Shown one piece after another: positions 951-28,290 of a stretch of DNA of 36,701 bases; within the stretch, counting starts at the first letter, position 1; each line of letters starts with the position of its first letter. A program made the position numbers and the translations under genes. The notes under the pieces are model-generated. The model ran no database searches. It saw nothing but the letters and a program-made list of their open reading frames with translations, and was not told where the DNA came from. Origin of the DNA: Kalymmatonema hyalinum WJT4-NPBG1 (GTDB lineage Bacteria; Cyanobacteriota; Cyanobacteriia; Cyanobacteriales; Nostocaceae). Location of the stretch: NCBI GenBank assembly GCA_019359075.1, contig JAHHIB010000088.1, positions 1-36,701 of the forward strand. Reading direction: 5' to 3'.

Positions 951-1652
951 ATGATTAATACGGTTAATACTATGACAGCCAAAATCATTGCTGTTGTCAA
1001 CCAGAAGGGTGGGTCAGGAAAGACAACTGTTAGTATGCAGCTTGCCGGGGCAATTGCACGGCGTGGCAACAAAGTTTTAGTAGTTGATGCAGACCCCCAA
1101 GGGACAGCGACACGCTGGGCAGCTTCCGCTCTTGATGAAACTCCTTTTCCTGCTTCCGTTGTCGGGTTAAGCGCAGCCAGCAACAAAGTTCACCGCGAAG
1201 TCAAAAAATTTATTGATGATTATGACTGCATCATCATCGACTGTCCTCCAGCAGCAGATTCCCCTGTTCCGCAAAGTGCGTTGTTAATTGCAGACCTTGC
1301 TTTGGTGCCTATCATCCCTTCTCCATTGGATATGTGGGCTGCGGTTGGTATTCGGCAGGTTATTCAAAATGTTAGCGACTTCAATGATGCCTTGCAGTCC
1401 AGGCTGGTATTAAACCAGTGCCAGCCGAAAACAACTTTGACACAGGAAAGTCTGGAAGTCTTGCCAGAGTTTGGGATTCCTCTACTCAAGACACAGATAC
1501 AGCATCGGCAGGTTTACCGTCAATCTGCTGTGTTCGGTCAGACAGTCCATAATTTCGGCAACAAGGCATCAGCCGCTATTTCGGAAATCGAAAGCCTAAC
1601 TGACGAAATGCTTGAGATACTGGGTGTTAAGCGCCAGAAAAGAAAAAGTTAA
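951..1652 (+). CDS. parA: ParA-family plasmid partition ATPase
   Basis: A 233-residue ATPase (226 if the second ATG at 972 is used, which would drop MINTVNT and begin at MTAKIIAVVN). It has the deviant Walker A motif KGGSGKTT near the N-terminus, the A' motif VVDADPQGTATRWA, and Walker B CIIIDCPPAADSP. This is the compact ParA type without an N-terminal DNA-binding domain, so regulation is left to the RHH partner. The protein would use ATP-dependent nucleoid binding to segregate plasmid copies. It is divergent from the RHH gene, with AT-rich repeats on both sides including a palindrome just upstream of the start. The start choice between 951 and 972 is unresolved: the operator palindrome crowds the 951 start, slightly favouring 972. 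Confidence 0.93.
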   Translation: MINTVNTMTAKIIAVVNQKGGSGKTTVSMQLAGAIARRGNKVLVVDADPQGTATRWAASALDETPFPASVVGLSAASNKVHREVKKFIDDYDCIIIDCPPAADSPVPQSALLIADLALVPIIPSPLDMWAAVGIRQVIQNVSDFNDALQSRLVLNQCQPKTTLTQESLEVLPEFGIPLLKTQIQHRQVYRQSAVFGQTVHNFGNKASAAISEIESLTDEMLEILGVKRQKRKS

Positions 1653-3433: not shown

Positions 3434-4444
3434 ATGCAAATATCTAGGGTTGAAAATCATAATAGCACTAGCGGGGATAACTTAGAATTTTTCGTGAATC
3501 CAAATTCTACGCGTGCGGAATCTGTAGGTGTACTTCACTCCGTGAGTTGGCAATCACTTATCCCACGCTGGCACTTTGCTATGCTTAATGATGTCGAACG
3601 TAATAAAGCATTTGAAACTGCCATAAAACACGTCGTGCGTCCAAATTGCACAGTGCTAGACATAGGAGCGGGTTCGGGATTACTAGCGATGATGGCTGCT
3701 CGTCATGGAGCTAGTTATGTAACATCCTGTGAAATGATGCAACCAATCGCACAGATAGCTAAGAAAATCATTGCTATCAATGGATTTAAAGACCAGATTA
3801 AAATTGTCCCGAAAAAGTCAGACGATCTTGTCGTTGGTCTAGATTTAGCTCAACGAGCCGATGTTTTAATCACCGAAACCGTTGATTGTGGGCTTGTGGG
3901 TGAAGGTATATTGCCAATCATTCGTCATGCTCGGCAAGCATTGTTGACTCCAGATGCGACGATCGTTCCAGCTAAAGCAGTAGTTAAGTTTAGCTTGTTA
4001 GAGAGCCATTTAGTACACAATCTGAATTTTGCATCCGACGCAAATAGCTTTGACGTTTCGCCGTTCAATATCTTCTCTACAGTCGGGTATTTTCCAGTTC
4101 GGCTGTGGATTTGGCCACATCGCTTGTTAAGTAAACCCACCACAGCATTTGAATTCGATTTCCGAGTCGATTCACTGAAACCACGCCAGAAGGAAATATC
4201 TGTACAAGTCGAACACAACGGGACTCTTCATGGTGTTGTTTTTTGGTTTGAGTTGGATTTAGGTAACGGAGTTGTTTTAAGCAATGCAGTAGATAACGAA
4301 AAATCACACTGGATGCAAGCAGTGCAATGCTTTGAAAAACCCATGATTGTTCAAAAGGACGATCTGTTGAATTTAACGGTTCGGCAAAGCGATACCAATA
4401 TCGATTTTCAGATTACCAAAGCACTTGGAAATGAGAGGATGTAA
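3434..4444 (+). CDS. PRMT7-like arginine N-methyltransferase (SznE-type), nitroso cluster
   Basis: A 336-residue class I SAM methyltransferase of the protein arginine methyltransferase type. Motif I is VLDIGAGSG (74-82), with acidic E100 after it. The PRMT double-E loop is present as ITETVDCGLVGEGILP (E148 and E157, nine residues apart as in PRMTs), closest in wording to PRMT7. A beta-barrel-like domain follows from about residue 178. PRMT7 enzymes make only monomethyl-arginine. In streptozotocin biosynthesis a PRMT-like enzyme methylates free L-arginine to N-omega-methyl-L-arginine, the substrate of SznF. The next gene here is a SznF homologue, so the same reaction is inferred. Free arginine rather than a protein substrate is a prediction from context. 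AGGAG about 11 bp upstream supports the start. Confidence 0.85.
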   Translation: MQISRVENHNSTSGDNLEFFVNPNSTRAESVGVLHSVSWQSLIPRWHFAMLNDVERNKAFETAIKHVVRPNCTVLDIGAGSGLLAMMAARHGASYVTSCEMMQPIAQIAKKIIAINGFKDQIKIVPKKSDDLVVGLDLAQRADVLITETVDCGLVGEGILPIIRHARQALLTPDATIVPAKAVVKFSLLESHLVHNLNFASDANSFDVSPFNIFSTVGYFPVRLWIWPHRLLSKPTTAFEFDFRVDSLKPRQKEISVQVEHNGTLHGVVFWFELDLGNGVVLSNAVDNEKSHWMQAVQCFEKPMIVQKDDLLNLTVRQSDTNIDFQITKALGNERM

Positions 4445-4660
4445 AAAATGTTGGCTGAAGCTGAAATTTAAGATACCAGCTTCTTGCGCTCGCACGACCT
4501 CAGAAGCTTTTCTCTATATAGCGATGATTCGGATCGCGCTCGAACGACTTGCATCATTTTTGACTCACTTTGACTTTCAAAATATCCTTTGAGTCGTTTG
4601 TCTGTCAAATCAATAAAACTGTTAGCCATTTTTATTTAGGTTAAGTAGGTAAGGTATACC
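4445..4660 (+). promoter_or_regulatory. 216-bp spacer with paired direct repeats upstream of the sznF-like gene
   Basis: No gene seen. Two near-identical 15-mers, GCGCTCGCACGACCT (4486-4500) and GCGCTCGAACGACTT (4536-4550), lie exactly 50 bp apart, about five helical turns, so both face the same side of the DNA. A GCTTCT/AGAAGC inverted repeat overlaps the first. TAAGG before the ATG at 4661 is the likely ribosome-binding site. The long gap inside an otherwise tight cluster suggests a second promoter or operator. This is inference. Confidence 0.35.
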
Positions 4661-6100
4661 ATGCAAACAAAAACTCGATTGTCACAAGAAACCTCTGCTG
4701 CTCTGAACATTACTGACTATGATTTTTTCAAGTCATGTTTAGTTGAATATGGCAAATGCAACCTATTTAAGGATACAGAGGAATGGTTGCTTGAAGACAA
4801 TCCTTATCGTCGAACTTTGCGACCGCACATTTTCCATTATTTGGACTTTTCAAAACCTCTAAACCGAAATAATTTACTGACTTACAATAGTCTGACTGCT
4901 AATCGAACATTGCTGACTGTGTATGAAAGCAATTTTGTATTCCTGCCAAAACACGATTTTGTTCATAAACGCCAAGATTTTGAAAAGTTTTATGACTCAA
5001 AACTTCTGACTTTGGGGAATATTATCCGACCTTGGTTGGAACACTATATTTTCTCATTCCTTGATACTGAAATATCTGTGACTGGTAATTGGAGTGCTGC
5101 TGCTGTTGAGGAGTATTTCCAAGAATATATCGAAACCGTCAAGAAGACAGAAAATAGTCAGGTAATGGAAACCATCGAAGGTTCGACAGATCCAGTCCAC
5201 GCTGCCAAAACCTTTTTGATCCAATTAGCTGGTGATTTTCTAGTTGAATCTTCAGCAATGTCTAGGAATATTTTGGGTTACTATGGCTCTCTCCAATCAG
5301 AGCTATTTAAGATTGTTATTGACGAATACGGCTACGGTGTTCATCAGACAAAACACAGCAAGTTATTTGAAGAAACACTCGAAAGTGTTGGCTTAGAATC
5401 AACGCCACACAGTTATTGGCAATTCTATTTAACATCTTCGCTGATGTTAAATAATTACTTCAATTACATTTGCGCCGACCACTCGAAATTCTTCCGCTAT
5501 TTAGGAGCCATTTTTTACGCAGAAACGACCTTCATCAAATTCTGCGAACTTACTGCTAAAACTCTGAAGAGAATCTTTGGTTCAACCATTAACAACTGCT
5601 ATTTTAGCGAACATGTCCATATCGATTATCATCACAGTCGAATGGTGCTGGAAAAGCTGATTATACCAGCGATCTCCACTTATGGTGAAGGAATAATTCC
5701 TGATATTGTGCGGGGTTTTGAGGAAGCCAAGCTCATATCCGAAATTGCCGATCGAGATTTCATTGACCAGGTGCATTGGGCTGACAACGGACTTAAGTAC
5801 AAAGCCTTAGGATTATCGGTCTATGCGAAAATTCAAGATGGTAGCATCAATCCGAAGATGCAGCAGTTTATTGAGCCTCGCGGTGAATTGTCAGTTACTC
5901 ACGTTCATGACGGTGATGAGCTTTGTTATATTCAGTCTGGTGTGATGAAGTTCGTTACTGGTCACGAGCGCTACACAATACTCAATGCTGGAGAAGGCAC
6001 GGTCATTCAGCATAATCGACTGCACGGAGCCATCATTGAATCCGAAGAATGCGTGTACAACATCTATTCAATCGGAGACTATCAAAAATGCCTGTTGTAA
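4661..6100 (+). CDS. sznF: SznF-like N-nitrosourea synthase: diiron oxygenase plus cupin
   Basis: A 479-residue protein with an N-terminal helical region, a central heme-oxygenase-like diiron oxygenase (HDO) domain and a C-terminal cupin. SznF of streptozotocin biosynthesis has this same three-part architecture and a similar length (about 471). From memory its diiron ligands are E189, E215, H225, E281, H311, D315 and H318, and its cupin iron ligands H407, H409 and H448. This protein has E196, E222, H232, E288, H318, D322, H325, H414, H416 and H455: every ligand is present at a constant +7 offset, implying near gap-free alignment. SznF hydroxylates N-omega-methyl-L-arginine twice, and its cupin rearranges the product to an N-nitrosourea. 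The same chemistry is predicted here. It follows the PRMT-like gene and overlaps the Rieske gene by 13 bp. Confidence 0.92.
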   Translation: MQTKTRLSQETSAALNITDYDFFKSCLVEYGKCNLFKDTEEWLLEDNPYRRTLRPHIFHYLDFSKPLNRNNLLTYNSLTANRTLLTVYESNFVFLPKHDFVHKRQDFEKFYDSKLLTLGNIIRPWLEHYIFSFLDTEISVTGNWSAAAVEEYFQEYIETVKKTENSQVMETIEGSTDPVHAAKTFLIQLAGDFLVESSAMSRNILGYYGSLQSELFKIVIDEYGYGVHQTKHSKLFEETLESVGLESTPHSYWQFYLTSSLMLNNYFNYICADHSKFFRYLGAIFYAETTFIKFCELTAKTLKRIFGSTINNCYFSEHVHIDYHHSRMVLEKLIIPAISTYGEGIIPDIVRGFEEAKLISEIADRDFIDQVHWADNGLKYKALGLSVYAKIQDGSINPKMQQFIEPRGELSVTHVHDGDELCYIQSGVMKFVTGHERYTILNAGEGTVIQHNRLHGAIIESEECVYNIYSIGDYQKCLL

Positions 6101-6450
6101 AATTCGATCCGCATCTATCAAACTTTCTGATTCATGATGATAGGCGTTTCTTCCTCATATCCTTGGACAACGGCATATTCTTAGTGACAGATAATTGTCC
6201 TCATCGAGGTGGACCGCTTCATCTAGGCTACTTTGATTGTCAAAAAAGCACTATCATCTGTCCTTGGCATGAGTTGGTTGTTTCTATGAATCATCTACAA
6301 CAACATGCTATGCCTTTAGTCTGGCGTAACGATATTGCAGTAGCTGTTTTACCTGAGATAAAGTCGAAGTCAATTGCGTTCAAGCATCGTCATATATTAG
6401 CTACTTCAGAAGTTTCAATTAAGGGGACAAGTTCTGTAATTGTCGAGTAG
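6088..6450 (+). CDS. Rieske-type [2Fe-2S] protein, translationally coupled to the sznF-like gene
   Basis: The preferred start is the ATG at 6088 (120 residues), inside the end of the sznF-like gene with GGAG a few bases upstream. A longer frame from 6049 would add 13 residues and overlap more. The cluster-binding motifs are complete: CPHRGGPLHLG (C37, H39) and CPWHE (C58, H61). The length is that of a stand-alone Rieske ferredoxin or small Rieske subunit. The 13-bp overlap suggests translational coupling and matched amounts. Diiron oxygenases need two electrons per O2 activation, so the natural role would be electron donor to the HDO domain. This is inferred and no dedicated reductase gene is visible on the plasmid. 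Alternatively it could serve an oxygenase encoded elsewhere. Confidence 0.85.
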   Translation: MPVVKFDPHLSNFLIHDDRRFFLISLDNGIFLVTDNCPHRGGPLHLGYFDCQKSTIICPWHELVVSMNHLQQHAMPLVWRNDIAVAVLPEIKSKSIAFKHRHILATSEVSIKGTSSVIVE

Positions 6451-6513
6451 CAAATAATTTTCTGCGAGAGCCAAGTTTTGACTTTACTGCTGGTAATGGA
6501 CTATTTCCCTTGA

Positions 6514-6574
6514 CCTGGAAAACAGTAGTTTGCCCGATTTATCCAAAGCAAACTATTTGAGCCTGTTTTCCAGG
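6514..6574 (+). promoter_or_regulatory. Long nested stem-loop between the Rieske and first ATP-grasp genes
   Basis: A perfect 12-bp inverted repeat CCTGGAAAACAG (6514-6525) / CTGTTTTCCAGG (6563-6574) encloses a second perfect 8-bp pair TAGTTTGC (6526-6533) / GCAAACTA (6548-6555). Without a T-run after it, it is not a classical terminator. It may be an attenuator, an mRNA-stabilising structure or a small palindromic insertion. It divides the cluster into a nitroso-forming half and a coupling/export half. Confidence 0.6.
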
Positions 6575-6622
6575 CTGTTATACCAAACCCAGTTCAATCT
6601 ACCCATTCCACGATGAGAAAAA

Positions 6623-6721
6623 ATGATGGAAGAACTGCAATGCTTACGGGTCAATGAGATGAGAACGGTGTTTGAAAGAACGCGGTTACACAACATGTTA
6701 TTGAATACGAAGTACTTATAA
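6623..6721 (+). CDS. Candidate 32-residue leader ORF before the ATP-grasp gene
   Basis: ATG-ATG at 6623/6626 opens a frame encoding MMEELQCLRVNEMRTVFERT then RLHNMLLNTKYL, ending at TAA 6719-6721. The stop overlaps the AAGGA ribosome-binding site of the ATP-grasp gene, the position of a leader peptide or translationally coupled small protein. Nothing identifies a function and no homologue was recognised. It may be chance. Confidence 0.25.
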   Translation: MMEELQCLRVNEMRTVFERTRLHNMLLNTKYL

Positions 6722-6733
6722 GGAACAAAAATA

Positions 6734-8005
6734 GTGGCTTTACAATACAAAAAGACTCATTCTCCCCACCTCCCTACCATTCTGTTGGTAACCAGTGGCT
6801 ACCATCTTTATCGTGAATATCTGCTAAAAATGGTTGCGGAACATTCAAATGTTTGGTTATTTCTCGATTCTGAACCGAGCTGGCAGATACCCTACATTGT
6901 CGGTCACACGGTGGTCAATACACTTGATGCCCAAATGATGATTGAGGTGGCACGTAATTTACCTGACGGCGTCAAAATTGACGGGGTGCTTTGCTGGGAT
7001 GAAATACGAATGGTGCAAACTGCCAAACTCGCTCAAGCCCTTGGTCTCCCAGGCACAGACCCTGAGAATGTCAGTCGGTGTCGTGACAAACACCTAACGC
7101 GCACCTTTTTGGCGGCATCAGGAGTCCCACAGGCTACCTCAATACTTGTCTCATCTCTTGAAGAAGCAGTCAAAGCCGCAGAGACTATTGGTTATCCTGT
7201 CATCATCAAACCGCGTGCATTGGGTGCAAGTTATGGGGTTAGCCTAGTGAACGGACCAGAACAGCTAAATACAGCGTTTGAACACGCTAAGGCTGCAACT
7301 GAGGAGGGCGTACCTGTTTACGATAAAGGTGTACTCGTTGAAGAGTATATGCAAGGACCAGAGGTCAGCATTGATGTTGCATGGGTTAACGGAATCATGT
7401 ATCCCCTGTTCGTTGGACGCAAGGTCACTGGCTTTTTTCCTCATTTTGAAGAAATTGGACACGTGGTGCATTCCAAAGACCCGTTATTTGAGTATCCACC
7501 ATTTCTCTCTGTTCTAGAGCAAGCACACCAAGCTGTGGGATTTCGCAACGGAATCACCCATACCGAGCTGCGTCTGACGCAGTCTGGTCCAAAGATAGTA
7601 GAAATCAATGCTCGACTTGGTGGCGATATGATTCCCTACGTTGGTTGGTTTGCTTCCGGAATAAACCCCGGGCAAGTAGCTGTTGCGGTTGCCTGTGGAC
7701 ACAAACCAGACGTGGAAACGAGACATGAAAGTGTCGCCGCCATTCAGTTTTTGTATCCTGAATATGATGCGGTTGTAGATAGTCTCCACATTGACCATGC
7801 TGCGCTCCCAGCTTCGGTTGTTGCTGCCGCCCCACTTGTTTCGCCAGGACAAAAATTGTTGCTGCCCCCAACCGACCACGTCTCTTGTCGGTATGGCTAT
7901 GCGATCGCCCGTGGAGACACCATTGAAGATTGTAAAGCAGCTACCGAACTAGCAGTCAAGGCGTTTAACCTAAAAGCTAGACATCTCTCTAAGGTGGGGG
8001 TGTGA
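6734..8005 (+). CDS. ATP-grasp carboxylate-amine ligase (amino acid ligase type), copy 1
   Basis: A 423-residue ATP-grasp enzyme starting at GTG 6734, with AAGGA nine bases upstream. It has an N-terminal Rossmann-like preATP-grasp region, the nucleotide-binding lysine in YPVIIKPRALGASYGV (K159), the hinge VLVEEYMQGPE (E203/E204), and the metal-binding segment TELRL...KIVEINARLGGD (E278, E290, N292). This layout is that of the BacD/carnosine-synthase-like L-amino acid ligases, which activate a carboxylate as acyl phosphate and couple it to an amine. In this cluster the substrate could be the nitroso-citrulline-like amino acid made by the SznF homologue, as acyl donor or amine acceptor. It is followed after one base by the exporter gene, an arrangement also seen with bacilysin-type ligases. 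Confidence 0.88.
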   Translation: MALQYKKTHSPHLPTILLVTSGYHLYREYLLKMVAEHSNVWLFLDSEPSWQIPYIVGHTVVNTLDAQMMIEVARNLPDGVKIDGVLCWDEIRMVQTAKLAQALGLPGTDPENVSRCRDKHLTRTFLAASGVPQATSILVSSLEEAVKAAETIGYPVIIKPRALGASYGVSLVNGPEQLNTAFEHAKAATEEGVPVYDKGVLVEEYMQGPEVSIDVAWVNGIMYPLFVGRKVTGFFPHFEEIGHVVHSKDPLFEYPPFLSVLEQAHQAVGFRNGITHTELRLTQSGPKIVEINARLGGDMIPYVGWFASGINPGQVAVAVACGHKPDVETRHESVAAIQFLYPEYDAVVDSLHIDHAALPASVVAAAPLVSPGQKLLLPPTDHVSCRYGYAIARGDTIEDCKAATELAVKAFNLKARHLSKVGV

Positions 8006-8006
8006 G

Positions 8007-9272
8007 ATGAGTAGCGCAAAACGCGATTTTAGAATACTGTGGGCTGGGCAGTCGTTAAATTTATTAGGAGATCAAATTCTGGTAGTCGCCCTGCCCTTAC
8101 TAGCCGTGCAAGTCATGGGAGTCTCTGCTTCCCAAGCCGTACTGCTCCCGTTTTTCCTTTTCGTACCATTCCTTATATTTGGATTACCTGCGGGTGCTAT
8201 TGTTGACCGGCTGTCACGACGACTCACAATGATTGTTTGCGATACCATACAAGCTGTGGTCTTCGTGCTTGTTACCGCCCTCGCGTTAAACGGCACCCTG
8301 ACGTTTCCAATGCTAGTACTGCTGGTTGCCATTGCCGGCACAGCTGTGGTGTTTTTTCAGATTGCCTATACTTCTTATATCCCAGAACTTTTTTCTGAAG
8401 CACAGGACTTGCAGCGTTCTAATTCGCGACTATTTTTCTCTGAGTCAATAACCAAGACGCTTGGTCCAATGCTTGCTGGGTCAATCATTGCGTGGCTGGG
8501 GATTGCTGCAGTTATCGCAGTGAACGCAGGGACGTTTGTCTTGTCCATGCTGTCGTTATTAGTCATTAAGCACAGGCAGCCGAAGACTACGAAGCATCAG
8601 GTAAAAAAGCAGGCTAGAGGCTGGATATACCGTGATATCCGTGAGGGTTTGCATTTCGTATTCCGCCACCGACGGCTAGAACCAGTTATTATGTGCGGGG
8701 TCGTATACGTCACGTTTTCCATTATGGTTGATTCTACTCTTGTGCTGTACTGCTTGAACGTACTTAGTCTGAGTTCGGTAATCATTGGCTTTGTTGTGGG
8801 CGCAGCTGCCGCTGGTTTTCCGATTGGTAATCTCTTTTGTACTCAGCTCGTTAATCGTTTTGGTGTTGCCCGCACTCTTGTTGTCAGCGCAATAGTGTCA
8901 GTAACAGGTTTAATTCTTATACCATTAGCTGGCTCGCTTGGCTCAGTCACTGGACTTATTGCTGCTAGCGTATTACATGGTATCGGAGAGGGTATTTTTG
9001 GACCCACAGCATTAACCTTGCGACAAACCGACACGCCCGACCACTTGCTAGGTAGAATCAACTCGATACAGCGATTTTTAGTGTGGGGTGCAGTTTCAAT
9101 CGGTAACCTCATCGCTGCTTTGACTATCAAATTGTTTGGTTTGAGCGGTACCTTATGGATTGGTGGTCTTGGAACCATTCTCTGTCTACCTCTACTAATA
9201 CGCAGAGATATCCTTAACGAATTGTTAAATTACCCGGCTGAGATTCCAGCTCAACGCAGACCAAAAGTATAG
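8007..9272 (+). CDS. Major facilitator superfamily exporter
   Basis: A 421-residue integral membrane protein with about 12 predicted hydrophobic helices in two six-helix halves and a charged cytoplasmic loop (about 190-215). The MFS motif A is seen as GAIVDRLSRRLTM, and DLQRSNSRLFFSESITKTLG is typical of the EntS/MFS_3-like drug and siderophore exporters. The start ATG lies one base after the ATP-grasp stop, so the two are almost certainly cotranscribed. The likely role is export of the finished compound, giving the producer self-protection against an alkylating or NO-releasing product. Substrate specificity cannot be read from the sequence. Confidence 0.9.
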   Translation: MSSAKRDFRILWAGQSLNLLGDQILVVALPLLAVQVMGVSASQAVLLPFFLFVPFLIFGLPAGAIVDRLSRRLTMIVCDTIQAVVFVLVTALALNGTLTFPMLVLLVAIAGTAVVFFQIAYTSYIPELFSEAQDLQRSNSRLFFSESITKTLGPMLAGSIIAWLGIAAVIAVNAGTFVLSMLSLLVIKHRQPKTTKHQVKKQARGWIYRDIREGLHFVFRHRRLEPVIMCGVVYVTFSIMVDSTLVLYCLNVLSLSSVIIGFVVGAAAAGFPIGNLFCTQLVNRFGVARTLVVSAIVSVTGLILIPLAGSLGSVTGLIAASVLHGIGEGIFGPTALTLRQTDTPDHLLGRINSIQRFLVWGAVSIGNLIAALTIKLFGLSGTLWIGGLGTILCLPLLIRRDILNELLNYPAEIPAQRRPKV

Positions 9273-9345
9273 CGGTTTTCAAATCAGTGTAATACACAAT
9301 ACAGTGGCACGGCAGTGCTGTGCTTCACCTAATTGAGAACCGCTA
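9270..9345. repeat. 76-bp palindromic element overlapping the exporter stop codon
   Basis: Perfect 8-bp ends TAGCGGTT (9270-9277) and AACCGCTA (9338-9345), with an internal hairpin GCACGGCAGTGCTGTGC. The first three bases are the TAG stop of the MFS gene. It resembles the small palindromic repeats scattered in cyanobacterial genomes. It may have landed at the 3' end of the exporter gene and now supplies its stop, or may act as a transcript-processing hairpin. Confidence 0.5.
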
Positions 9346-9385
9346 CATAAGATTTACACAAAACCGTCATTCTTTGGAGAATCAA

Positions 9386-10333
9386 ATGAAATACGCAGAA
9401 GGCATAAATGAATTTGTAGACCGATGCAACAAAGCCATGCCACCTAATTTTTACACTTTGCCTATCGAGCAGCAGCGGGAAATGTACCTTGGCCTCACTA
9501 AAGAATTTCCCTATCAAATGCCGCCTGATGTATTGGTGACTGACGACACAGTTTCATATGAAGGGCGAAAGCTGCCGATTAGGGTATATCGTCCAAAACA
9601 GACAAAAGGTAGAGGACTGGTAATTTATATTCGTGGCGGTGGATTCGTCGTCGGCTCGTTAGAGACACATAATACAGTTGTTGCAGAGTTAAGCGAAAAA
9701 TCGGGATTAGTTACCATCGCCCCAGACTTTAGGATGTCACCGGAACACCCTTTTCCAGCGGCTCTTGAGGACTGTTATGGTGTGCTGTGCGGTGTTGTCA
9801 ATGATGCCCAACGATTAGATATCGATCCGAATAGAATTGTGATTTCAGGCGACAGTTCTGGAGCAAACATGGCTGTTGCCGTCAGTATGATGAGTCGTGA
9901 CCGAAGCGGTCCTAAGTTGCGGGGTCAAGCGTTGATAAGTCCTGTTCTCGATTTTACTCGCTGGTGTAAAGGAGGTGTCGATGCTCCCTTGCTAACTGGT
10001 GGTGAAATGGAATACTACACAGCCTGCTATGTACCTGAGCCAGAAAAGGTGAAACATCCTTACGTCTCTCCACTGGTAAACGGAACATTTCACGATCTGC
10101 CACCAGCATATATCATGGCGGCAGAAATGGACTCACTTTTAGTTGACTCTCAGGAATACACTCGTCTTCTTCGTGAAGAAGGAACCCAAGTTGAATTAGT
10201 CGTTGAGCCCGGTTTAGTGCATTCTGCTGTAAGAGCGCGGGGCTTAAGTCCCCAGGTGGCTGACGCTTGGGAAAGGTTCATACACCACGCAGCTTTACTC
10301 GCTTGTAAGGAGGATTTGACCAATGACAATTAG
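9386..10333 (+). CDS. Hormone-sensitive-lipase-type alpha/beta hydrolase
   Basis: A 315-residue hydrolase. The start at 9386 is preferred over an upstream ATG at 9320 because TTGGAGA lies just before it and the extra residues would come from the palindromic element. The family's oxyanion motif HGGG is replaced by RGGG (IYIRGGGFVVGS, R83). The nucleophile elbow is ISGDSSGAN (S157), the acid is D249 in AEMDSLLVDS, and H279 in LVHSAV completes the triad. HSL-family enzymes hydrolyse esters or, more rarely, amides or carbamates. In this cluster a deprotection, ester-forming or peptide-trimming step is possible. Its stop overlaps the next gene by 11 bp. Confidence 0.85.
   Translation: MKYAEGINEFVDRCNKAMPPNFYTLPIEQQREMYLGLTKEFPYQMPPDVLVTDDTVSYEGRKLPIRVYRPKQTKGRGLVIYIRGGGFVVGSLETHNTVVAELSEKSGLVTIAPDFRMSPEHPFPAALEDCYGVLCGVVNDAQRLDIDPNRIVISGDSSGANMAVAVSMMSRDRSGPKLRGQALISPVLDFTRWCKGGVDAPLLTGGEMEYYTACYVPEPEKVKHPYVSPLVNGTFHDLPPAYIMAAEMDSLLVDSQEYTRLLREEGTQVELVVEPGLVHSAVRARGLSPQVADAWERFIHHAALLACKEDLTNDN
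10307..10313 (+). promoter_or_regulatory. Strong Shine-Dalgarno for the second ATP-grasp gene
   Basis: AAGGAGG, a full anti-16S complement, sits nine bases before the ATG at 10323, inside the end of the preceding hydrolase gene. It fixes the start and predicts strong, possibly independent translation. Confidence 0.75.
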
Positions 10334-11603
10334 TAATCCAGAGGGTCTTGCGGTGATTGTTGACCCATATTCTTCTGGTGCTTTCTTTGCGCCAGCGTTC
10401 GCGGAGGCAGGTGTGCCGGTTGTGGCAGTTGTATCCAGCCCTGCTCCTCCAGAAGTGTACGCATCATCCTATCGACCTCAAGACTTTTCACAGATTATTA
10501 TCGCAACTGAGGATCTCTCAGAGGTTGTGAACAAACTAAGGGAATTGCGTCCGCGATGTATACTGCCGGGATGTGAATCAGGAGTCGAGCTCGCGGACGC
10601 GATCGCCCCCCTGGTAGTCGAGGACTTAGCCAATGTTCCGGAGAAGGCCAGCGCTCGTCGGCATAAGGGTGACATGGCCGCTGCAGTGGCACAAGCCGGA
10701 CTACCAATCATTGCCCAGATATGTACTAATGACGCTGACGAAGTAGAAAAATGGTTATATCAAGCAGACCTTATTGGGCGCGATCTTGTAATCAAACCAC
10801 CCAAGAGTGCTAGTACTGATGGGGTAACCAAAGTGCCATCATGTGAAGATTGGCGCAAGATTTTCAATGAAATGCTGGGCAAACATAATCGTCTAGGGAT
10901 ACTCAACGACAAGCTACTTGTACAAGAATATACCGCAGGTGTTGAATACGTCATCGATACTATTAGCTATGAAGGTAAGCACTCAATCAGTGATATATGT
11001 AGATATCACAAAATCGATAACGGTCAATACATGGCGATTTACGATAGCATGGAATGGCTTCCTCCGACGATTCCAGTCTACGACCAAATCGTGGATTATG
11101 CGTGCGGTGTACTTGACGCAGTCGGTATGCGGTTCGGCACGTCCCACCTCGAAGTCATGCTTACAGAACGCGGACCGAGACTAATTGAGATTGGTACTCG
11201 ACCGCATGGAGGTGGTCACCCGCGCTTCTGTCGCGTCGCTACTGGGGATAGTCAAGTGGATCGAGCGGTTCGGTACTTTACCCGCAAAGGCTCTATTCCT
11301 GACAGCTTTAAACTAATTACTCACGTTTTAGTAGTGTTTTTAATCTGTCGGGCTGAAGGCACAGTGAGTAACGCCGAAATATTCGACGGGGTACGGGAAC
11401 TGCACAGTCATCATTTTTCGGTGATAAACATCCGAAATAACGATTGGTTGGAACCGACAAAGGATCTTTTCGCCAGTCTCAAACTAGGCTTCGTTGTCTT
11501 GGCTCATGAAGATCGATCCCAAATTATGGCCGATTACAAGCTGATCCGCACCTTAGAGCAGCAACTTAAACTCAATACCAAAAAAACAAATATCAAAGCG
11601 TAA
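10323..11603 (+). CDS. ATP-grasp carboxylate-amine ligase, copy 2
   Basis: A 426-residue ATP-grasp protein, clearly diverged from the first copy. It has an N-terminal Rossmann-like region (IVDPYSSGAFFAPAFAEAGV), the lysine motif RDLVIKPPKSASTDGV, the hinge LLVQEYTAGVEYVID, and the metal-binding segment TSHLEVMLTERGPRLIEIGT followed by RPHGGGHP. A C-terminal domain of about 110 residues follows. Proteins of this type join amino acids or amino acids to amines. Two non-identical ligases suggest two successive couplings, so the product may be a small modified peptide with the nitrosourea amino acid as one residue. It overlaps the upstream hydrolase by 11 bp and directly abuts the next gene, so it is part of one operon. 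Confidence 0.88.
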   Translation: MTISNPEGLAVIVDPYSSGAFFAPAFAEAGVPVVAVVSSPAPPEVYASSYRPQDFSQIIIATEDLSEVVNKLRELRPRCILPGCESGVELADAIAPLVVEDLANVPEKASARRHKGDMAAAVAQAGLPIIAQICTNDADEVEKWLYQADLIGRDLVIKPPKSASTDGVTKVPSCEDWRKIFNEMLGKHNRLGILNDKLLVQEYTAGVEYVIDTISYEGKHSISDICRYHKIDNGQYMAIYDSMEWLPPTIPVYDQIVDYACGVLDAVGMRFGTSHLEVMLTERGPRLIEIGTRPHGGGHPRFCRVATGDSQVDRAVRYFTRKGSIPDSFKLITHVLVVFLICRAEGTVSNAEIFDGVRELHSHHFSVINIRNNDWLEPTKDLFASLKLGFVVLAHEDRSQIMADYKLIRTLEQQLKLNTKKTNIKA

Positions 11604-12377
11604 ATGTCTACGAACAATCCTCAAGCAAAAATTAACTTCACACACCCACCAGGGCAGTATTACAATGTTCGAGGTCGAAGACTTTGGGTAGAGCAAGAGG
11701 GAATTGGCGAGCCTGTAATTTTATTGTCTGGCCTTGGTCCAGCTGGGTCTCACGTTATTTTTCACCCCCATTTCGACACGCTAGCTACTGATTACCGAAT
11801 AGTTTACGTAGACCTGTATGGACGCGGTCGCTCTGAAGCGCCCGACGATCTCAACGAAATTACATTTGAGAGTGATGTTGCTGATGTAGCTGCGCTTCTA
11901 TCAGAACTAAATCTTGGACCAGTTCATTTGTATGGATTTTCGTATGGGGGTCTTCTTGCACAGGCAATAGCACTCGACCATCCTCATCTCGTGCGTAGTT
12001 TGGTATTAGCAAACAGTCTGCACAGCCCAGAAATGTGGCAACTCAACCACGTCAACATCAACCGCGAAATCGCTAACCAATGCCCTGAGGTTTGGGCAAA
12101 AATTCAGGCATTGCGTGCTGATGGCGTTCCCTCCACCGATCCGAAGATGCAAGAACAATTTGCCTGCGCCGCTAAGCTTGTACGCTTCTACAATCCGGAA
12201 AACGCTCGACTGCTAGCCACCGAACCAGGGGCACGTAATTTAGATCTCTACCCGCTATTTTGTGGTGAGGATGTGGACTTTAACATCGGCAATCAGGTTG
12301 CTAAAATACCGGATTTTCGACCTCTGCTGAAAAATGTGACTGCCCCTATAGGCGTAATGCTAGAGAGTCTATCATGA
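11604..12377 (+). pseudogene. Alpha/beta hydrolase (proline iminopeptidase-like), C-terminally truncated
   Basis: The ATG follows the ATP-grasp stop with no gap. The 257-residue frame has the alpha/beta hydrolase core: LLSGLGPAGSH oxyanion region, VDLYGRGRS, and nucleophile elbow YGFSYGGLLAQ (S113). It stops soon after NVTAPIGVMLE, just where relatives of about 290-300 residues continue with the strand carrying the catalytic aspartate and then the histidine. Both are missing, so it is unlikely to be catalytically competent. The break is near 12358, about 210 bp before a transposon insertion at 12571, consistent with loss of the cluster's 3' end by rearrangement. Homologues might act as peptidases or esterases on the coupled product. 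Listed as a pseudogene, though the operon structure before the break is intact. Confidence 0.75.
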
Positions 12378-12565
12378 AGTGCCACGCAGAGATACTCTCG
12401 TTCCGATTTTATTTTTGGTTTTGGAACTTATCCAAGTCTCTCCTGATTTTGATGCCAAAAATTCATCAATTTCTCGCGCCTTGTGGGAGAAATGTTCCGA
12501 CACTGATTGAAACCGGAACTGTGTAAACTTTTGTGTGCTTTGAAAGAGAATAGCTAAAAGCCAAT
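12378..12565. other. Unassigned stretch between the truncated hydrolase and the transposon
   Basis: No confident gene. A minus-strand frame here contains FRFQSVSEHFSHKAREIDEF and LASKSGETWISSKTKNKIG, which reads somewhat like protein, but it is short, has no clear start and is cut by the insertion at 12571. It is probably the scar of another gene. Confidence 0.3.
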
Positions 12566-12943
12566 CATATTGTCGGTGGGACGATAATCTTGCCGCGACT
12601 GGAACCATAATCTTGCCGTTGCCGAGGCTGTAATGTTCATTCTTTCGTTAAGCGTACGCAACCCTAATTGAGAAATTGGAATCATAATCTTGCCGTCAAC
12701 CAAAAATGGAATCATAAGCTTGCCAAAAAAAGGTAATCTTAAGATTTGATTTTTAGGTTGGTGCATCTAGAGTCAAACACGTCTGCCCTGAGCGTTCTAG
12801 TTTTTTGGAGACTTCAAGCCTGAATTTTTACGAATTGTGCGTTCTCAGTCGGTTTGTAGTCAAATGTATAGCCTACAAGGATTAGAGGCATTGGAAGCAT
12901 AAGCTTGCCATTCCGGCAATATTATCGTTCCACCGACACATAT
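12566..12943. mobile_element. 368-bp non-autonomous Tn7-like element (MITE) with 5-bp target duplication
   Basis: The element runs 12571-12938. Both ends carry the same 24-bp terminal sequence in inverted orientation (12571-12594 and 12915-12938, two mismatches), starting TGTCGGTGG and ending ACCGACA, the TGT...ACA form of Tn7-like transposons. It is flanked by a perfect 5-bp direct duplication CATAT (12566-12570 and 12939-12943), the usual Tn7 length. Internal copies of GGAATCATAATCTTGCCG recur at 12601, 12678, 12708 and 12893, the multi-site pattern expected for TnsB-type transposase binding. No transposase or cargo gene fits inside, so it must have been moved by an element elsewhere. Confidence 0.85.
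12578..12931. repeat. Six copies of an 18-bp transposase-site-like repeat
   Basis: Consensus GGAATCATAATCTTGCCG. Copies lie at 12578-12595, 12601-12618, 12678-12695, 12708-12724 and 12893-12909 on the plus strand and at 12915-12931 inverted. The four left copies point inward and the last one is the mirrored right end. The asymmetry (four left, one or two right) resembles the unequal ends of Tn7-type elements. Confidence 0.75.
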
Positions 12944-13462
12944 CAGTATTTTCAACCACTTAGCACCTGGTGACACTTTCTCTAGCTTTACGCCTAACAG
13001 GAGCCAAGTGCGTAACCTGTCGTAGCACAAACTGCGGTTGCTCCGCCCCCAAAGCAAAGCGCATAGTACTGCCATGCTTGTTCAAGGAATCTTGCGGTCC
13101 GTCACATCATCAAGAGTGCTAATTGCTACCGCACTATGTTGGCACAGCTACACCACACTTCGCCTCGCAAAATCTACGTATTTTGCACCACTTGGCGTAC
13201 TAACTCTGCCTAATTGTAGATACGGTAGCCCACACAAATTGTGCTCCGTTTGCACCTCCGTTGTGCTGAGTCTGCACCCAGTGCTACCCCACGAGTGGTT
13301 TTCGGGTAGCGCTGTCCTTTTTTTGTGGTGTATGTACCGACTGGCGCGATGCACAGCCTCTGGTAAAAGCGTACGCCAGGAGCATCCAAACTGACTCAAA
13401 CTCTTTTGAGAGAGCTATCGCGCTCTGGGGGGTTTTCATAATTAAAGAGTCGATGCCCTTTA
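12944..13462. other. Gene-free stretch
   Basis: About 520 bp in which open frames on either strand lack protein-like composition or convincing starts. A weak hairpin AGAGAGC...GCGCTCT lies near 13412-13428. It is placed past the 3' end of the minus-strand gene at 13463 and could help end that transcript. Nothing else was recognised. Confidence 0.35.
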
Positions 13463-14712: not shown

Positions 14713-16419
14713 ATGGCTTATGCGATCGCGCGGCTGGCTAAACTCAAAAAAGGTAATCTTTCAGGCAGTGCTGCACATACTGCCAGAACTCGACCTACAC
14801 CCAACGCCGACGCCGCAAAACAAAATCTCAGATTTATTGGCAGTACCGACTCTGAGGAGAAACTAGAAGACCTGGTACAAGCCAAGATTGACTCCTACAA
14901 ACAAAAGCGGAAGATACGTACCGATGCCGTGTACTGCGTTGAACTTCTCCTCACCGCATCCCCCAGCTATTTCAGACCAGATGACCCAACCAATGGTGGG
15001 TATTATGAAGAAGATAAGCTTAAAGCATGGTTTGATGCCGCCCAAAATTGGCTCACTCTACAGTACGGTTCACGCATTGTTCGCGCTGAGCTGCATTTGG
15101 ACGAAGTGACGCCCCATATCCACGCTTACTTTGTGCCGCTGGATGAGTTTGGTCAGCTCAGGTGCAACCACTTCTTTGACGGTCGGCAGAAGATGCGGGC
15201 TTTTCAGGACAGCCACTATGCCGCCATGCAGCACCTGGGGTTAGAGCGCGGTATCAAAGGGAGTGTTGCCAAACATCAGGATATCAAAGACTTTTACAGG
15301 ATTGTTGAGGAAGGTCGTGACCTCGACACAGGTGAACTATCACCAGAACAGCTACAAGCCAAAGCCGCTGACAGGGATAGGGCAGTGAAGAAGAAAGCCG
15401 AAATGGAGGAGACTACCCTTCGGTTGGTGAAGGATCAGGAATTGTTGCAACAACGGATTCAGCAACTAGAAGCAGAAAACCAACAACTGCGGAATCAGCT
15501 TGACCAACTACGTGACCTCCCCCTAGAAGATGTGGCTTGGCAGTTGGGACTGACCAAAACCAAAGATGGCAAGTGGAAAGGAGGGGGACATATCATTAGT
15601 ATTGATGAACCCAAGTGGTATGACTTTGCCCCTGGTTCCCAAAAGGGTGGTGGTGGTGCAATTGACTTGGTGATGTATGTCAACAGTTGTAGCTTCCAAA
15701 AGGCTCTAGCTTGGTTGAGTGACAGATTTGGGTCTGGGGGTATGCTCAAAGCGGCAACTCACCATGCCAGGGGACAAGCCCAAGAGATTGCCCAAACAGA
15801 ACCAATACCACAGTTCACACCACCCGCTGCTGATTCGAGTCAGTGGTCAGCAGTACAGCAATACCTCATCCAACAAAGGGGACTACCAGCAAACATGGTG
15901 CAAGCCCTCCACTCGCGACGTTTTGTTTATGCCGACTCCAACCAAAATGCCGTATTCGGAATGAGGTCGCTCACGGGAGAAACCACCGGAGCATTCTTGC
16001 GAGGAACCAGGGGCGAAGACAACTCTTTTATGGGATATGCCCGTGGCACCAAACGAGCAGATGGTTGGTTCTATCTCAGATTGGGTGGCAAACCGGATGA
16101 TGATATCACTAGAGTAGTCATCACCAAATCCCCCATCGATGCCCTGTCGCTGGCAGCTATTGAAGGAATGCCCCAACAAAAGACCATGTATCTGGTTGCT
16201 GACAGTACCAAGAGCTTGCCAGTGGAGTTCCTCCAGTCAATCCCAACAGTGATAGCGGCTTATGATAGTGATGCAGCTGGGGATGAATTGGCTCAAGCGA
16301 TTCAGGATCTGCTGCCACAAACTGAAAGAATGCGTCCAATAGCCAAAGATTGGAACTCCGAGTTGCTAGCAAGATTGCGACAGCAACAAAAGCAGAAGAA
16401 TCGGGGAATTGAGCGATAA
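14713..16419 (+). CDS. MobV relaxase fused to a DUF3991/TOPRIM-like module
   Basis: A 568-residue protein. Residues 1-200 form a MobV (Mob/Pre) relaxase: MAYAIARLAKLKKGNLSGSA at the N-terminus, then H22 and R25 (AHTAR), the positions of the catalytic histidine and arginine of MobM from pMV158, and the metal motif ELHLDEVTPHIHAYFVP (H128, H135, H137). A coiled coil follows (about 215-275). The C-terminal half resembles the DUF3991 and TOPRIM modules of plasmid mobilisation proteins, with DSDAAGDELA as the DxD motif. The usual TOPRIM glutamate (ITESPIDALS in relatives) is lysine here, ITKSPIDALS. It would nick oriT and lead strand transfer. With no full secretion system visible, the plasmid is predicted to be mobilisable, not self-transmissible. 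Confidence 0.9.
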   Translation: MAYAIARLAKLKKGNLSGSAAHTARTRPTPNADAAKQNLRFIGSTDSEEKLEDLVQAKIDSYKQKRKIRTDAVYCVELLLTASPSYFRPDDPTNGGYYEEDKLKAWFDAAQNWLTLQYGSRIVRAELHLDEVTPHIHAYFVPLDEFGQLRCNHFFDGRQKMRAFQDSHYAAMQHLGLERGIKGSVAKHQDIKDFYRIVEEGRDLDTGELSPEQLQAKAADRDRAVKKKAEMEETTLRLVKDQELLQQRIQQLEAENQQLRNQLDQLRDLPLEDVAWQLGLTKTKDGKWKGGGHIISIDEPKWYDFAPGSQKGGGGAIDLVMYVNSCSFQKALAWLSDRFGSGGMLKAATHHARGQAQEIAQTEPIPQFTPPAADSSQWSAVQQYLIQQRGLPANMVQALHSRRFVYADSNQNAVFGMRSLTGETTGAFLRGTRGEDNSFMGYARGTKRADGWFYLRLGGKPDDDITRVVITKSPIDALSLAAIEGMPQQKTMYLVADSTKSLPVEFLQSIPTVIAAYDSDAAGDELAQAIQDLLPQTERMRPIAKDWNSELLARLRQQQKQKNRGIER

Positions 16420-19400: not shown

Positions 19401-19895
19401 ATCTTCCCAGTCGTAGCGGGTCACCCATTGGTTTTGTGAATAATTGTAAACAATCTCGGTAGCATGACCGGGGACACCTTTCACCGAATGCCGTAGCGCT
19501 GTAGGCTGTGGGCAGTCAGTAGCAGGATCAGCTAATTGTACCAGTGTTGCGTCAGATGGGATAGGAACTGACTTGAATTTGGGTAATTGTAACTTTGGCG
19601 CAGCGTGGGGTGACTTGTAGTAAGTCCGGTTGGCTGCGACTTCACTCCTGGGGCAAATCGCTGAGCGAATATCTCGACACTCACACCCATTCCAGCACTT
19701 GTACTTCCCTGTTTTCGGGTCGATGCTCAGATTGTCATGGGAACAAACTGGGCAAATGTACTTATTCTTCTCCAAAGCGGGTGTCAGGCGATCGCTAAAG
19801 TTGCGAATGTCGAAGGTTCTTGAACTGTCCGCTCTATTGTTATGCGGTTGACTGTTCTGCGAAGGGTTGGAATGTGAGTCAAAATTGAAAACCAC
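16464..19895 (-). CDS. Plasmid replication primase-helicase (zinc finger, TOPRIM, D5/SF3-like helicase)
   Basis: An 1143-residue protein, the largest on the plasmid and its likely replication protein. In order: a zinc-ribbon-like CxxC-CxxxC (C48, C51, C67, C71); a TOPRIM domain with LLQEGEKVVEIA (E221) and HDGDSAGL (D270, D272); a D5_N-type region (about 485-530); and a P-loop helicase core with Walker A GQSGGGKGT (571-579) and DVGGYAEGIRAF downstream, as in poxvirus D5/VapE-like helicases. The last 300 residues are low-complexity, rich in proline, glutamine and glycine, with a small basic C-terminal domain ending GCLKPPTG. It would unwind DNA and prime synthesis at the origin. It converges on the relaxase gene with about 45 bp between their stops. 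Confidence 0.88.
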   Translation of the reverse strand: MVFNFDSHSNPSQNSQPHNNRADSSRTFDIRNFSDRLTPALEKNKYICPVCSHDNLSIDPKTGKYKCWNGCECRDIRSAICPRSEVAANRTYYKSPHAAPKLQLPKFKSVPIPSDATLVQLADPATDCPQPTALRHSVKGVPGHATEIVYNYSQNQWVTRYDWEDPNHPKGRNKTCRQWHRKEDGTPIMKKGDKPWLAYRLLEVIEAIKSASSVPAVLLQEGEKVVEIARAEGLVSFTFQGSSWSPASIEPSLHQIKDARSDTLIIFLHDGDSAGLKKADTVKECCHKLGLACLLVNPHQICPELENDTDDLEQILAHMDVPEFIRRLEEQIHAAVDGQNIPLQEDSLYEDVQSASLDSDKWFVASDHPEAFYKPVCQALKLPIEHCVTSQTFDGWVYRQKFGGGKGDWRVINSAFYQLDKGTQVWKHQPDNRVMTLIADAGENAFRLHYTKTFGWLVKKPYESNSHKESAFKYVRTRLERPEPLPINTHLLAFHNCAVDLRTGETMPLSKDLFLTNIIPHDYSPNKPCPEVFRQFVVDSFGEDMLEVIRAFTSMFLDPTAPYGRFPHLIGQSGGGKGTLGRFWSSLFGEDGSGSSSHFSDISTPEGRHQYLTGKRIFGFPDVGGYAEGIRAFYELVDNGPMTGRALFNPVAYSLKWYMRFWVASVDHLQVENAGDGWARRAYPIPVKSRTVKPDPFLALQLEAVKADVISWALAMPRDERDLILLSPPESPRAINLALDAALYGDSTKSFVDLCLRPSSKPEFVPSHLLHSWYVAYCKEHGYSPLGMSKFISHLRTVLSRNFVDRHWSPMVNGKRERIQAHWEYLESVPGAFVKWEPDARNSGENLLPPQNPTWVCLKASCQEGGLMEFEDFWNPPDPPQDDGGGGGNQPNQPSPTTGGGVAVEGVETLEPSHINGVRPVQAPENGQNSLGQAERAQNQGCPSCPIVQGESFGIVETQNQSEEIVGSGFSLTPNEVGGQRVDRLDSGQTADCPKADSPLADEPAIVKANAENIRIALNEMNWEMISSLTEEWTLKFKKAVWQQLSLEERKSVKMLKNNAQSSTDTASAVPAAPSPRTAAPASTATALTAPKEWQPQVNKSAMYGNELVQVVGFRSRGREFQVQFASLTTRYVKRGCLKPPTG

Positions 19896-27559: not shown

Positions 27560-27598
27560 GTATTGATTTTACTAAATTATCAGAGGTAGGTAGTAAAG

Positions 27599-27841
27599 AT
27601 GAGTGCAGAACAAGAATTATTAACAAAATGGCGTTCCCTTCCACAAGACAAACAAGAGGAAGTTTTAGATTTTGTTGAATTTCTTTACGTTAAAAACTCT
27701 GTTAATAAAGCCTCGTTGGGAGAACGTTTACGCCAAATCCGCTCTAGAATTGTTGCTGATGGTGAACCTTTATTAAGTCGAGATGAAATAGAAAAAGAAA
27801 TTGCTAGTCGTCGTGGAGGATTACAGGAAACTGACGGATGA
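27599..27841 (+). CDS. DUF2281-type antitoxin of a PIN toxin pair
   Basis: An 80-residue protein. ELLTKWRSLPQDKQEEVLDF followed by VEFLY is the DUF2281 pattern found in cyanobacterial VapB-like antitoxins. The charged C-terminus (LLSRDEIEKEIASRRGGLQE) would contact the toxin. Its stop overlaps the toxin start (ATGA at 27838-27841), so the two are coupled. It is expected to neutralise the PIN protein and repress the operon. Confidence 0.8.
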   Translation: MSAEQELLTKWRSLPQDKQEEVLDFVEFLYVKNSVNKASLGERLRQIRSRIVADGEPLLSRDEIEKEIASRRGGLQETDG

Positions 27842-28242: not shown

Positions 28243-28290
28243 TGTTTGATTGTCGATATTAAGCGAGCAATGTCTAAAGGATAAACAGTA

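What the first reader, a model, noticed from the sequence alone, without database searches (positions are those of the whole stretch)
3434..12377. Plasmid-borne N-nitrosourea biosynthetic cluster in a cyanobacterium
Eight same-strand genes combine a PRMT7-like methyltransferase, a SznF-like N-nitrosating enzyme, a Rieske protein, two different ATP-grasp ligases, an MFS exporter and two hydrolases. The first two genes match the arginine-to-nitrosourea route of streptozotocin. The rest differ from a sugar-linked product: two ligases suggest the nitrosourea amino acid is built into a small peptide. Sequence shows the genes and motifs, family knowledge supplies the chemistry, and the peptide product is inference. 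I am not aware of a described cyanobacterial compound of this kind.
Basis: partly seen in the sequence, partly recalled or inferred. Interest (0 to 1): 0.95.

Follow-up and report, generated by a model that had tools for sequence, protein, structure and literature searches.

The report
Cyanobacterial plasmid nitrosourea gene cluster
A small circular plasmid of a Nostoc-family cyanobacterium carries genes very like those that make the DNA-methylating drug streptozotocin, and relatives in three bacterial phyla carry much the same gene set beside genes that repair methylated DNA.

Summary
The eight genes are real, and the plasmid claim holds: the contig ends overlap by exactly 127 bases, and it carries ParA, relaxase and primase genes. 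The 479-residue protein is a full-length SznF homologue (E 8e-156) with all eleven checked positions conserved, on SznF's side of a supported split. A PRMT-type methyltransferase and a Rieske protein complete the core.

The two ATP-grasp ligases do not separate this cluster from streptozotocin: 7 of 7 loci in SznF's own clade (86.8-93.0% identical to SznF) carry the same ligases, esterase and an MFS gene, and L041 has the window's order. Best reading: a streptozotocin-type N-methyl-N-nitrosourea cluster of a distinct subtype (own D, E, F, H), shared by Nostocales, a Myxococcaceae MAG and actinomycetes.

New support: O6-methylguanine transferase and/or PF09859 oxygenase genes lie within about 10 kb of 24 of 28 loci with methyltransferase and intact cupin, 0 of 9 other SznF-like loci, and 0 of 40 control stretches. 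The window itself lacks them, and its last hydrolase is cut by nested inverted-repeat insertions. No product was observed; whether it is streptozotocin, another ureido compound or a peptide is open.

The parts
3434..4444 (+). Gene A: PRMT7-like arginine N-methyltransferase (SznE-type)
   Evidence: PRMT_C E 1.4e-13; best solved match PRMT7 E 4.6e-43; motif TETVDCGLVGE, whose form [ST]ExxDCxxxGE is in 30 of 30 PRMT rows; SHWMQ in 26 of 30 and HWxQ in 30 of 30; dN/dS 0.17 vs L002
4661..6100 (+). Gene B: SznF homologue (N-terminal, heme-oxygenase-like diiron and cupin domains)
   Evidence: E 8.2e-156 to SznF PDB 6m9r, 48.8% identity over the aligned columns; all 11 checked positions (E189 E215 H225 E281 H311 D315 H318 H407 H409 H448 Y459) conserved
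6049..6450 (+). Gene C: small Rieske [2Fe-2S] protein overlapping the end of gene B; a later ATG at 6088 is a possible start; proposed electron donor for the diiron site
   Evidence: Rieske E 9.2e-07; CPH...CPWH motif
6734..8005 (+). Gene D: ATP-grasp ligase 1
   Evidence: ATP-grasp_4 E 1.6e-18; nearest solved BL00235 L-amino acid ligase E 2.5e-23, then BacD; separated from the szn-type D by a 100/100 split
8007..9272 (+). Gene E: MFS exporter
   Evidence: MFS_1 E 1.7e-35; homologues in L002, L004, L006, L043, L044, L050, L084
9320..10333 (+). Gene F: hormone-sensitive-lipase-type esterase with Arg in place of the oxyanion-hole His (IRGGGF) and GDSSG nucleophile motif
   Evidence: Abhydrolase_3 E 8.8e-58; RGGG in 17 of 17 homologues; that the usual residue is His is recalled
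10323..11603 (+). Gene G: ATP-grasp ligase 2
   Evidence: NCBIfam NF005543 E 8e-146 (above its cut-off), dapdiamide A synthase DdaF E 7.7e-40 (below its cut-off); solved L-amino acid ligase 30vh E 8.7e-53
11604..12377 (+). Gene H: alpha/beta hydrolase, broken; conserved only to 12350 (249 codons); ORFs of relatives L002, L004, L006 and L050 have 302-312 aa
   Evidence: the L002 protein goes on with the region that by family knowledge holds the catalytic Asp and His
12349..12996 (.). MITE-like insertion at the end of gene H: imperfect 34-nt terminal inverted repeats (12349-12382 / 12963-12996)
   Evidence: shorter copy elsewhere in the same genome at C27:42446-42711
12571..12938 (.). Second inverted-repeat element nested in the first (44-nt arms, 75% complementary)
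   Evidence: absent from the C27 copy, pieces match C152:10168-10251
951..1652 (+). ParA-family partition ATPase (plasmid backbone)
   Evidence: NF041546 E 1.7e-65, above cut-off
14713..16419 (+). Mob_Pre relaxase fused to DUF3991/Toprim (plasmid mobilisation)
   Evidence: PF01076 E 2.3e-36
16464..19895 (-). D5_N/Pox_D5 primase-helicase (plasmid replication, inferred)
   Evidence: PF08706 E 2.3e-13

Best explanation
A streptozotocin-type N-methyl-N-nitrosourea gene cluster on a mobilisable circular plasmid. Inferred from homology to characterised enzymes: A methylates a guanidine nitrogen of L-arginine, and B hydroxylates two guanidine nitrogens at its diiron site and rearranges the product in its cupin domain to an N-methyl-N-nitrosourea amino acid. 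Inferred: C feeds electrons to B; the ligases D and G and the unusual esterase F carry the nitrosourea unit from the amino acid onto or into the final product; E exports it. The product should methylate DNA. The D/E/F/H subtype is shared by Nostocales, a Myxococcaceae MAG and actinomycetes, so its final product probably differs from streptozotocin in the acceptor but belongs to the same pathway type. In this plasmid copy H is broken and the flanking DNA-repair genes of its relatives are missing, so finished product may not be made or may be tolerated by other means.
For: Full-length SznF match with all 11 checked positions conserved. Same side of a 98/98 split as PDB SznF; nearest clade Nostocales plus Myxococcaceae, 97/96. 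PRMT double-E-type motif in 30 of 30 PRMT rows. Seven loci with SznF 86.8-93.0% identical to PDB SznF (L040, L041, L042, L056, L057, L080, L081) all carry D, an MFS gene, F and G beside PRMT-SznF; L041 has exactly PRMT-SznF-Rieske-D-MFS-F-G. The full A-H set lies in order in L002, L004, L006, L043 and L044; L050 has it rearranged and without D. OGT/Ada and/or PF09859 lie within about 10 kb of 24 of 28 PRMT-plus loci with intact cupin, 0 of 9 others, and 0 of 40 control 20-kb stretches. PF09859 is in 2 of 192 same-family genomes, both sznF-cluster carriers, with the gene about 10 kb from sznF. dN/dS 0.11-0.24.
Against: No product or activity was seen. The authentic szn cluster was not available; close relatives stand in for it. 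The window's own genome has no PF09859 gene and no cluster-linked Ada; its one Ada (C103, 44% identity to the L002 Ada) looks like the genus's ordinary copy. H is broken. Four loci with PRMT and intact cupin lack OGT/PF09859 nearby: window, L003 (AlkA-like glycosylase only), L005, L007. The loci are related, so the Fisher p (5.7e-6) is not a true probability, and the split by cupin state was made after seeing the data (split by PRMT alone: 24 of 30 vs 0 of 7, p 1.7e-4). One PRMT-less locus, L052, has only about 4 kb on one side. L050 lacks D on its 22-kb contig, so D is not in every member of the subtype. Roles of C, D, F and G are inferred.
Confidence: 0.82

Rival explanations
1. One reading: the nitrosourea amino acid is joined by the two ATP-grasp ligases into a small peptide, unlike streptozotocin.
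For: The nearest solved or curated relatives of D and G include amino-acid or dipeptide ligases (BL00235, BacD, 30vh, dapdiamide synthase). D of the window type is set apart by a 100/100 split, so its substrate may differ.
Against: The same two ligases and the esterase occur in 7 of 7 loci of SznF's own clade, so their presence does not point to a peptide. A review says SznH, SznJ and SznK likely lead to streptozotocin; by gene order these would be D, F and G (my mapping).
Confidence: 0.25
2. The cluster makes streptozotocin itself.
For: Same seven gene classes in the same order as L041.
Against: D, F and the MFS gene fall outside the szn-type groups, and H has close homologues only in this subtype.
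Confidence: 0.15
3. This plasmid copy is decaying and makes at most the early intermediates.
For: H is truncated by nested insertions; the repair genes that follow H in L002 and L004 are absent from the plasmid and PF09859 is absent from the genome.
Against: A-G are open and carry low dN/dS; H is absent from the szn-type loci, so it may be dispensable.
Confidence: 0.35
4. B makes a diazeniumdiolate (graminine-like) or another oxidised arginine, not a nitrosourea.
For: SznF homologues in metallophore clusters are implicated in diazeniumdiolate formation (PMC10849742, section 6).
Against: No NRPS/PKS domain in the 28 window proteins scanned; the PRMT is present; the diiron ligands are intact, whereas all but one of the NRPS/PKS-linked homologues in that paper's third cluster lack many of them, as does Tistrella L085 here.
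Confidence: 0.05

Closest known systems
Streptozotocin (szn/stz) cluster of Streptomyces achromogenes, seen here through SznF (PDB 6m9r/6m9s/6vzy) and its close relatives L040, L041, L042, L056, L057, L080, L081
   Same: PRMT, SznF with all checked residues, Rieske, ATP-grasp, MFS, Arg-type HSL esterase and second ATP-grasp; in L041 in the window's order
   Different: D and F in separate groups; a different MFS family; an extra hydrolase H (broken here); no adjacent OGT/PF09859 in the window
   Same: The A-H gene set (L050 rearranged and without D)
   Different: They have a longer H (302-312 aa ORFs in L002, L004, L006, L050; 298-304 aligned residues in L043, L044) and OGT/Ada, with PF09859 in L002, L004, L043 and L044
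Diazeniumdiolate (graminine) metallophore clusters such as, by the literature, that of Tistrella (L085)
   Same: An SznF-like protein
   Different: MbtH-type NRPS accessory gene nearby in L085, no PRMT, diiron ligands not kept in L085; 26.6% identity to the window protein
SznF-Rieske loci without PRMT, e.g. Gloeothece verrucosa PCC 7822 plasmid (L031) and Azospirillum plasmid (L032)
   Same: SznF with intact HDO and cupin residues plus Rieske, on plasmids
   Different: No PRMT and no DNA-methylation repair genes found nearby

Membership tests
Streptozotocin-type (szn) N-nitrosourea cluster | SznF orthologue with intact diiron and cupin ligands | tested here: met
   11 of 11 positions; same side of a 98/98 split as PDB SznF
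Streptozotocin-type (szn) N-nitrosourea cluster | Arginine guanidino-methyltransferase next to sznF | tested here: met
   PRMT7-like gene A, 216 bp upstream of B; its substrate is inferred
Streptozotocin-type (szn) N-nitrosourea cluster | Rieske, ATP-grasp, MFS, HSL and ATP-grasp genes following, as in SznF's close relatives | tested here: met
   the authentic S. achromogenes cluster itself was not available
Streptozotocin-type (szn) N-nitrosourea cluster | Tailoring genes of the same subfamilies as the szn-type loci | tested here: not met
   D and F group apart from the szn-type rows and the MFS gene is of another family: a subtype, not an szn cluster proper
Streptozotocin-type (szn) N-nitrosourea cluster | Linked DNA-methylation repair genes (seen in 7 of 7 SznF-clade loci) | tested here: not met
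   Absent from the window; present in same-subtype L002, L004, L006, L043, L044, L050
Streptozotocin-type (szn) N-nitrosourea cluster | Produces an N-methyl-N-nitrosourea; streptozotocin on a glucosamine scaffold | not testable with these tools
   Needs enzymology or mass spectrometry
Diazeniumdiolate (graminine) NRPS clusters | NRPS/PKS genes beside the SznF homologue | tested here: not met
   No NRPS or PKS domain in the 28 window proteins scanned, of 40 ORFs of 100 aa or more
ATP-grasp dipeptide ligase pathway | L-amino acid ligase activity of D or G | not testable with these tools
   Sequence relatives only

The most novel reading that the evidence does not exclude
Cyanobacteria, myxobacteria and actinomycetes share an undescribed N-methyl-N-nitrosourea natural product. 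It is built on the common PRMT-SznF-Rieske core by its own D-E-F-H module, moves on a plasmid in at least one host, and usually travels with O6-methylguanine and PF09859 repair genes that mark producers of DNA-methylating compounds.
Probability: 0.5. Interest if true: 0.78.

Novelty: new variant of a known kind. Interest (0 to 1): 0.62.

Why it matters
If true, free-living cyanobacteria can carry the pathway for a DNA-methylating compound whose type is known to me from one Streptomyces drug, and a plasmid can move it. The linked repair genes give a sequence-only marker that separates SznF loci expected to make methylating nitrosoureas (methyltransferase and cupin intact) from those that are not. 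The comparison also points to the genes (two ligases and an Arg-type esterase) that probably finish the molecule, a step the review that I read describes only as likely.

Tried and rejected
Small peptide because of ATP-grasp genes: rejected as an argument, since SznF's own clade has the same ligases. Graminine-type pathway: rejected, no NRPS found, PRMT present. Chance ORFs: rejected (dN/dS). Self-resistance genes elsewhere in the window's genome: PF09859 absent; one Ada at C103, but Ada is in 57 of 192 same-family genomes, both same-genus genomes without sznF included. Finding the authentic szn cluster: not found among 394, 392 and 61 genomes; the best is L041, 93.0% identical to PDB SznF. 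Viral contigs and metagenome contigs were not searched, and no structure was predicted.

Rows left out of the 37-row table: G409 (near a contig edge), three Rhizobium plasmid hits covering 56-59% of the query, two matches of 25-26% identity, and L053, a duplicate of L005. In the F tree my script cut the L040 row to 39 residues and its place means nothing; tblastn finds a 305-residue F match there.
Full report
What is there. The window is contig C76 of an 8.4-Mb, 174-contig genome. Its first and last 127 bases are identical, as in a circular contig, so the plasmid is 36,574 bp. It carries ParA (951-1652), a Mob_Pre relaxase (14713-16419), a D5-type primase-helicase (16464-19895, minus) and two tyrosine recombinases. 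The host is a cyanobacterium: the Amazonocrinis, Calothrix and Desmonostoc genomes reappear by identical match places as G078, G096 and G001, 'same family'.

The eight genes. A 3434-4444 PRMT; B 4661-6100 SznF-like; C 6049-6450 Rieske; D 6734-8005 ATP-grasp; E 8007-9272 MFS; F 9320-10333 HSL-type esterase; G 10323-11603 ATP-grasp; H 11604-12377 alpha/beta hydrolase. B matches SznF along its length at E 8.2e-156. All eleven positions checked are the same as in SznF. The review PMC11705231 (section 20 read) reports that alanine changes at E215, H225, E281, H311, D315 or H318 abolish activity and that changes at H407, H409 and H448 stop the rearrangement; it also names Y459. E189 is from recall. 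A keeps the motif [ST]ExxDCxxxGE, found in 30 of 30 PRMT rows, and SHWMQ, found in 26 of 30 (HWxQ in 30 of 30); that these correspond to PRMT double-E and THW signatures is recalled. F has Arg where this family usually has the oxyanion His (recalled): RGGG in 17 of 17 homologues.

H is broken. DNA homology with L002 stops at 12350, at an inverted-repeat element 12349-12996 with a second element 12571-12938 nested inside it. The genome holds a copy of about 266 bp of the outer element without the inner one (C27) and pieces of the inner one (C152). H ORFs in L002, L004, L006 and L050 have 302-312 residues; the window ORF has 257, the last eight codons outside the conserved part.

Relatives. The search for related loci gave seven loci; the genome search gave 5 of 192 same-family genomes, 2 of 386 in a draw from the phylum, 16 of 394 in the family of Kitasatospora L008 and 9 of 392 in one genus of it (two shared); plasmids gave 8 records, 5 covering at least 80% of the query. 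I tabulated 37 loci including the window; what was left out is told under Tried and rejected. Thirty have a PRMT: seven of the window subtype (window, L002, L004, L006, L043, L044, L050; D is in six, not on the 22-kb contig of L050), nine with D, a different MFS family, F and G (L007, L040, L041, L042, L047, L056, L057, L080, L081), eight with only G among D, F and G (L008, L045, L046, L048, L049, L076, L077, L079), two plasmid mixtures (L030, L084) and four with an amino-acid permease (L003, L005, L055, L078). Seven have no PRMT.

In the SznF tree the PDB protein groups with L040, L041, L042, L056, L057, L080 and L081 (100/100; identities 86.8-93.0%). All seven carry D, an MFS gene, F and G, and L041 has the order PRMT-SznF-Rieske-D-MFS-F-G. 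The review says SznH, SznJ and SznK likely mediate the conversion to streptozotocin. Counting genes from SznE and SznF, these fall on D, F and G; that mapping is my inference, because the authentic cluster was not available. So two ligases and an esterase appear to be part of the streptozotocin type and say nothing for a peptide.

Why a distinct subtype. In the D tree the window subtype (window, L002, L004, L006, L043, L044) and the szn type are parted by a 100/100 split, although L043 and L044 have SznF of the actinobacterial clade. F of the szn type is likewise set apart (100/100; L040 aside); within the remaining F rows the order is open. E and H occur with this subtype, apart from an E homologue in Pantoea plasmid L084, a weak MFS match in L054 and weak H-like matches in L003 and L005. 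G does not follow the subtype. A module D-E-F-H thus appears to have moved between phyla separately from SznF (inference).

DNA-methylation repair genes. Downstream of H in L002 lie an M24 peptidase, Ada (PF02805 plus PF01035) and PF09859, described in Pfam as an oxygenase acting on damaged DNA; L004 has homologues of all three. Methylobacterium plasmid L030 has Ada, AlkA and a 2OG oxygenase as annotated, Pantoea plasmid L084 an Ada, and L041 OGT and PF09859 just upstream of PRMT. By tblastn (E<=1e-7), OGT/Ada and/or PF09859 lie within about 10 kb of sznF in 24 of 30 PRMT-plus loci and 0 of 7 PRMT-less loci (p 1.7e-4). Two PRMT-plus misses (L055, L078) have lost the cupin ligands. Splitting by PRMT and intact cupin gives 24 of 28 against 0 of 9 (p 5.7e-6). 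The remaining misses are the window, L003 (an AlkA-like glycosylase only), L005 and L007. This second split was made after seeing the data, the loci are related, and PRMT-less L052 has a short flank. As control, 40 other 20-kb stretches that I picked by position from 23 genomes of the set gave 0 hits. PF09859 is in 2 of 192 same-family genomes, both sznF-cluster carriers; the other three sznF carriers (the window's genome, G001, G105) lack it. This is what a DNA-methylating product would predict; it remains an association.

Against the reading. The window's genome lacks PF09859. A DNA search with L002's H-to-PF09859 stretch found only the H part on the plasmid, plus three matches of 28-37 bases. 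The genome's one Ada is on another contig, and such an Ada is in 57 of 192 same-family genomes, including the two same-genus genomes without sznF. So this strain may not finish the compound, or may tolerate it by other means. No product has been seen.

Prior art. The chalkophomycin paper (PMC10849742; passages, section 6 read) counts 426 SznF homologues, with SznF and 135 others in szn-type clusters, so cyanobacterial members may already be in its network; its only use of the word cyanobacteria is in a reference title. My searches (listings seen) showed no description of a cyanobacterial nitrosourea cluster. The library is partial and the primary streptozotocin papers that I asked for are not held.

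Verdict. A real, plasmid-borne, streptozotocin-type nitrosourea cluster of a distinct subtype; the peptide inference is unsupported; the product is unknown.

Noticed in passing
window 12349-12996: Nested inverted-repeat (MITE-like) elements cut the end of gene H; a copy of the outer one and pieces of the inner one occur elsewhere in the same genome.
   Followed up: partly
window 30865-33651 (minus): 928-aa hybrid signalling protein: CHAT domain, TRADD-like N-terminal domain, PAS, histidine kinase and response-regulator domains in one chain.
   Followed up: no
L003:11835-16103 and L005:11879-15168: Nostoc and Desmonostoc loci with SznF 86-93% identical to the window's have quite different following genes (hydrolase, amino-acid permease, M24 peptidase), so the core swaps its tailoring cassette within one family.
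   Followed up: partly
L055, L078: PRMT-plus loci whose SznF-like proteins have lost the cupin metal ligands, with an amino-acid permease and no DNA-repair genes found nearby: perhaps hydroxylated methylarginine only.
   Followed up: partly
L006, L054, L082 (genome G194): One Myxococcaceae MAG holds three SznF-like genes; two of them lack PRMT neighbours and cupin ligands.
   Followed up: partly
L031:9953-14102: Gloeothece verrucosa PCC 7822 plasmid: SznF with intact checked residues, Rieske and an ATP-grasp but no PRMT and no methyl-repair gene nearby; perhaps a non-methylated nitrosourea.
   Followed up: partly
window 9320-10333 and homologues: HSL-type esterase with Arg instead of the usual oxyanion-hole His in 17 of 17 homologues, which hints at a reaction other than ordinary ester hydrolysis.
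   Followed up: partly
window 1923-2468: DJ-1/PfpI family protein upstream of the cluster; not part of the conserved set.
   Followed up: no
window 26918-28952: Uma2 nuclease and two PIN-domain genes; similar stretches with Uma2 and VapC genes lie on other Nostoc plasmids.
   Followed up: no
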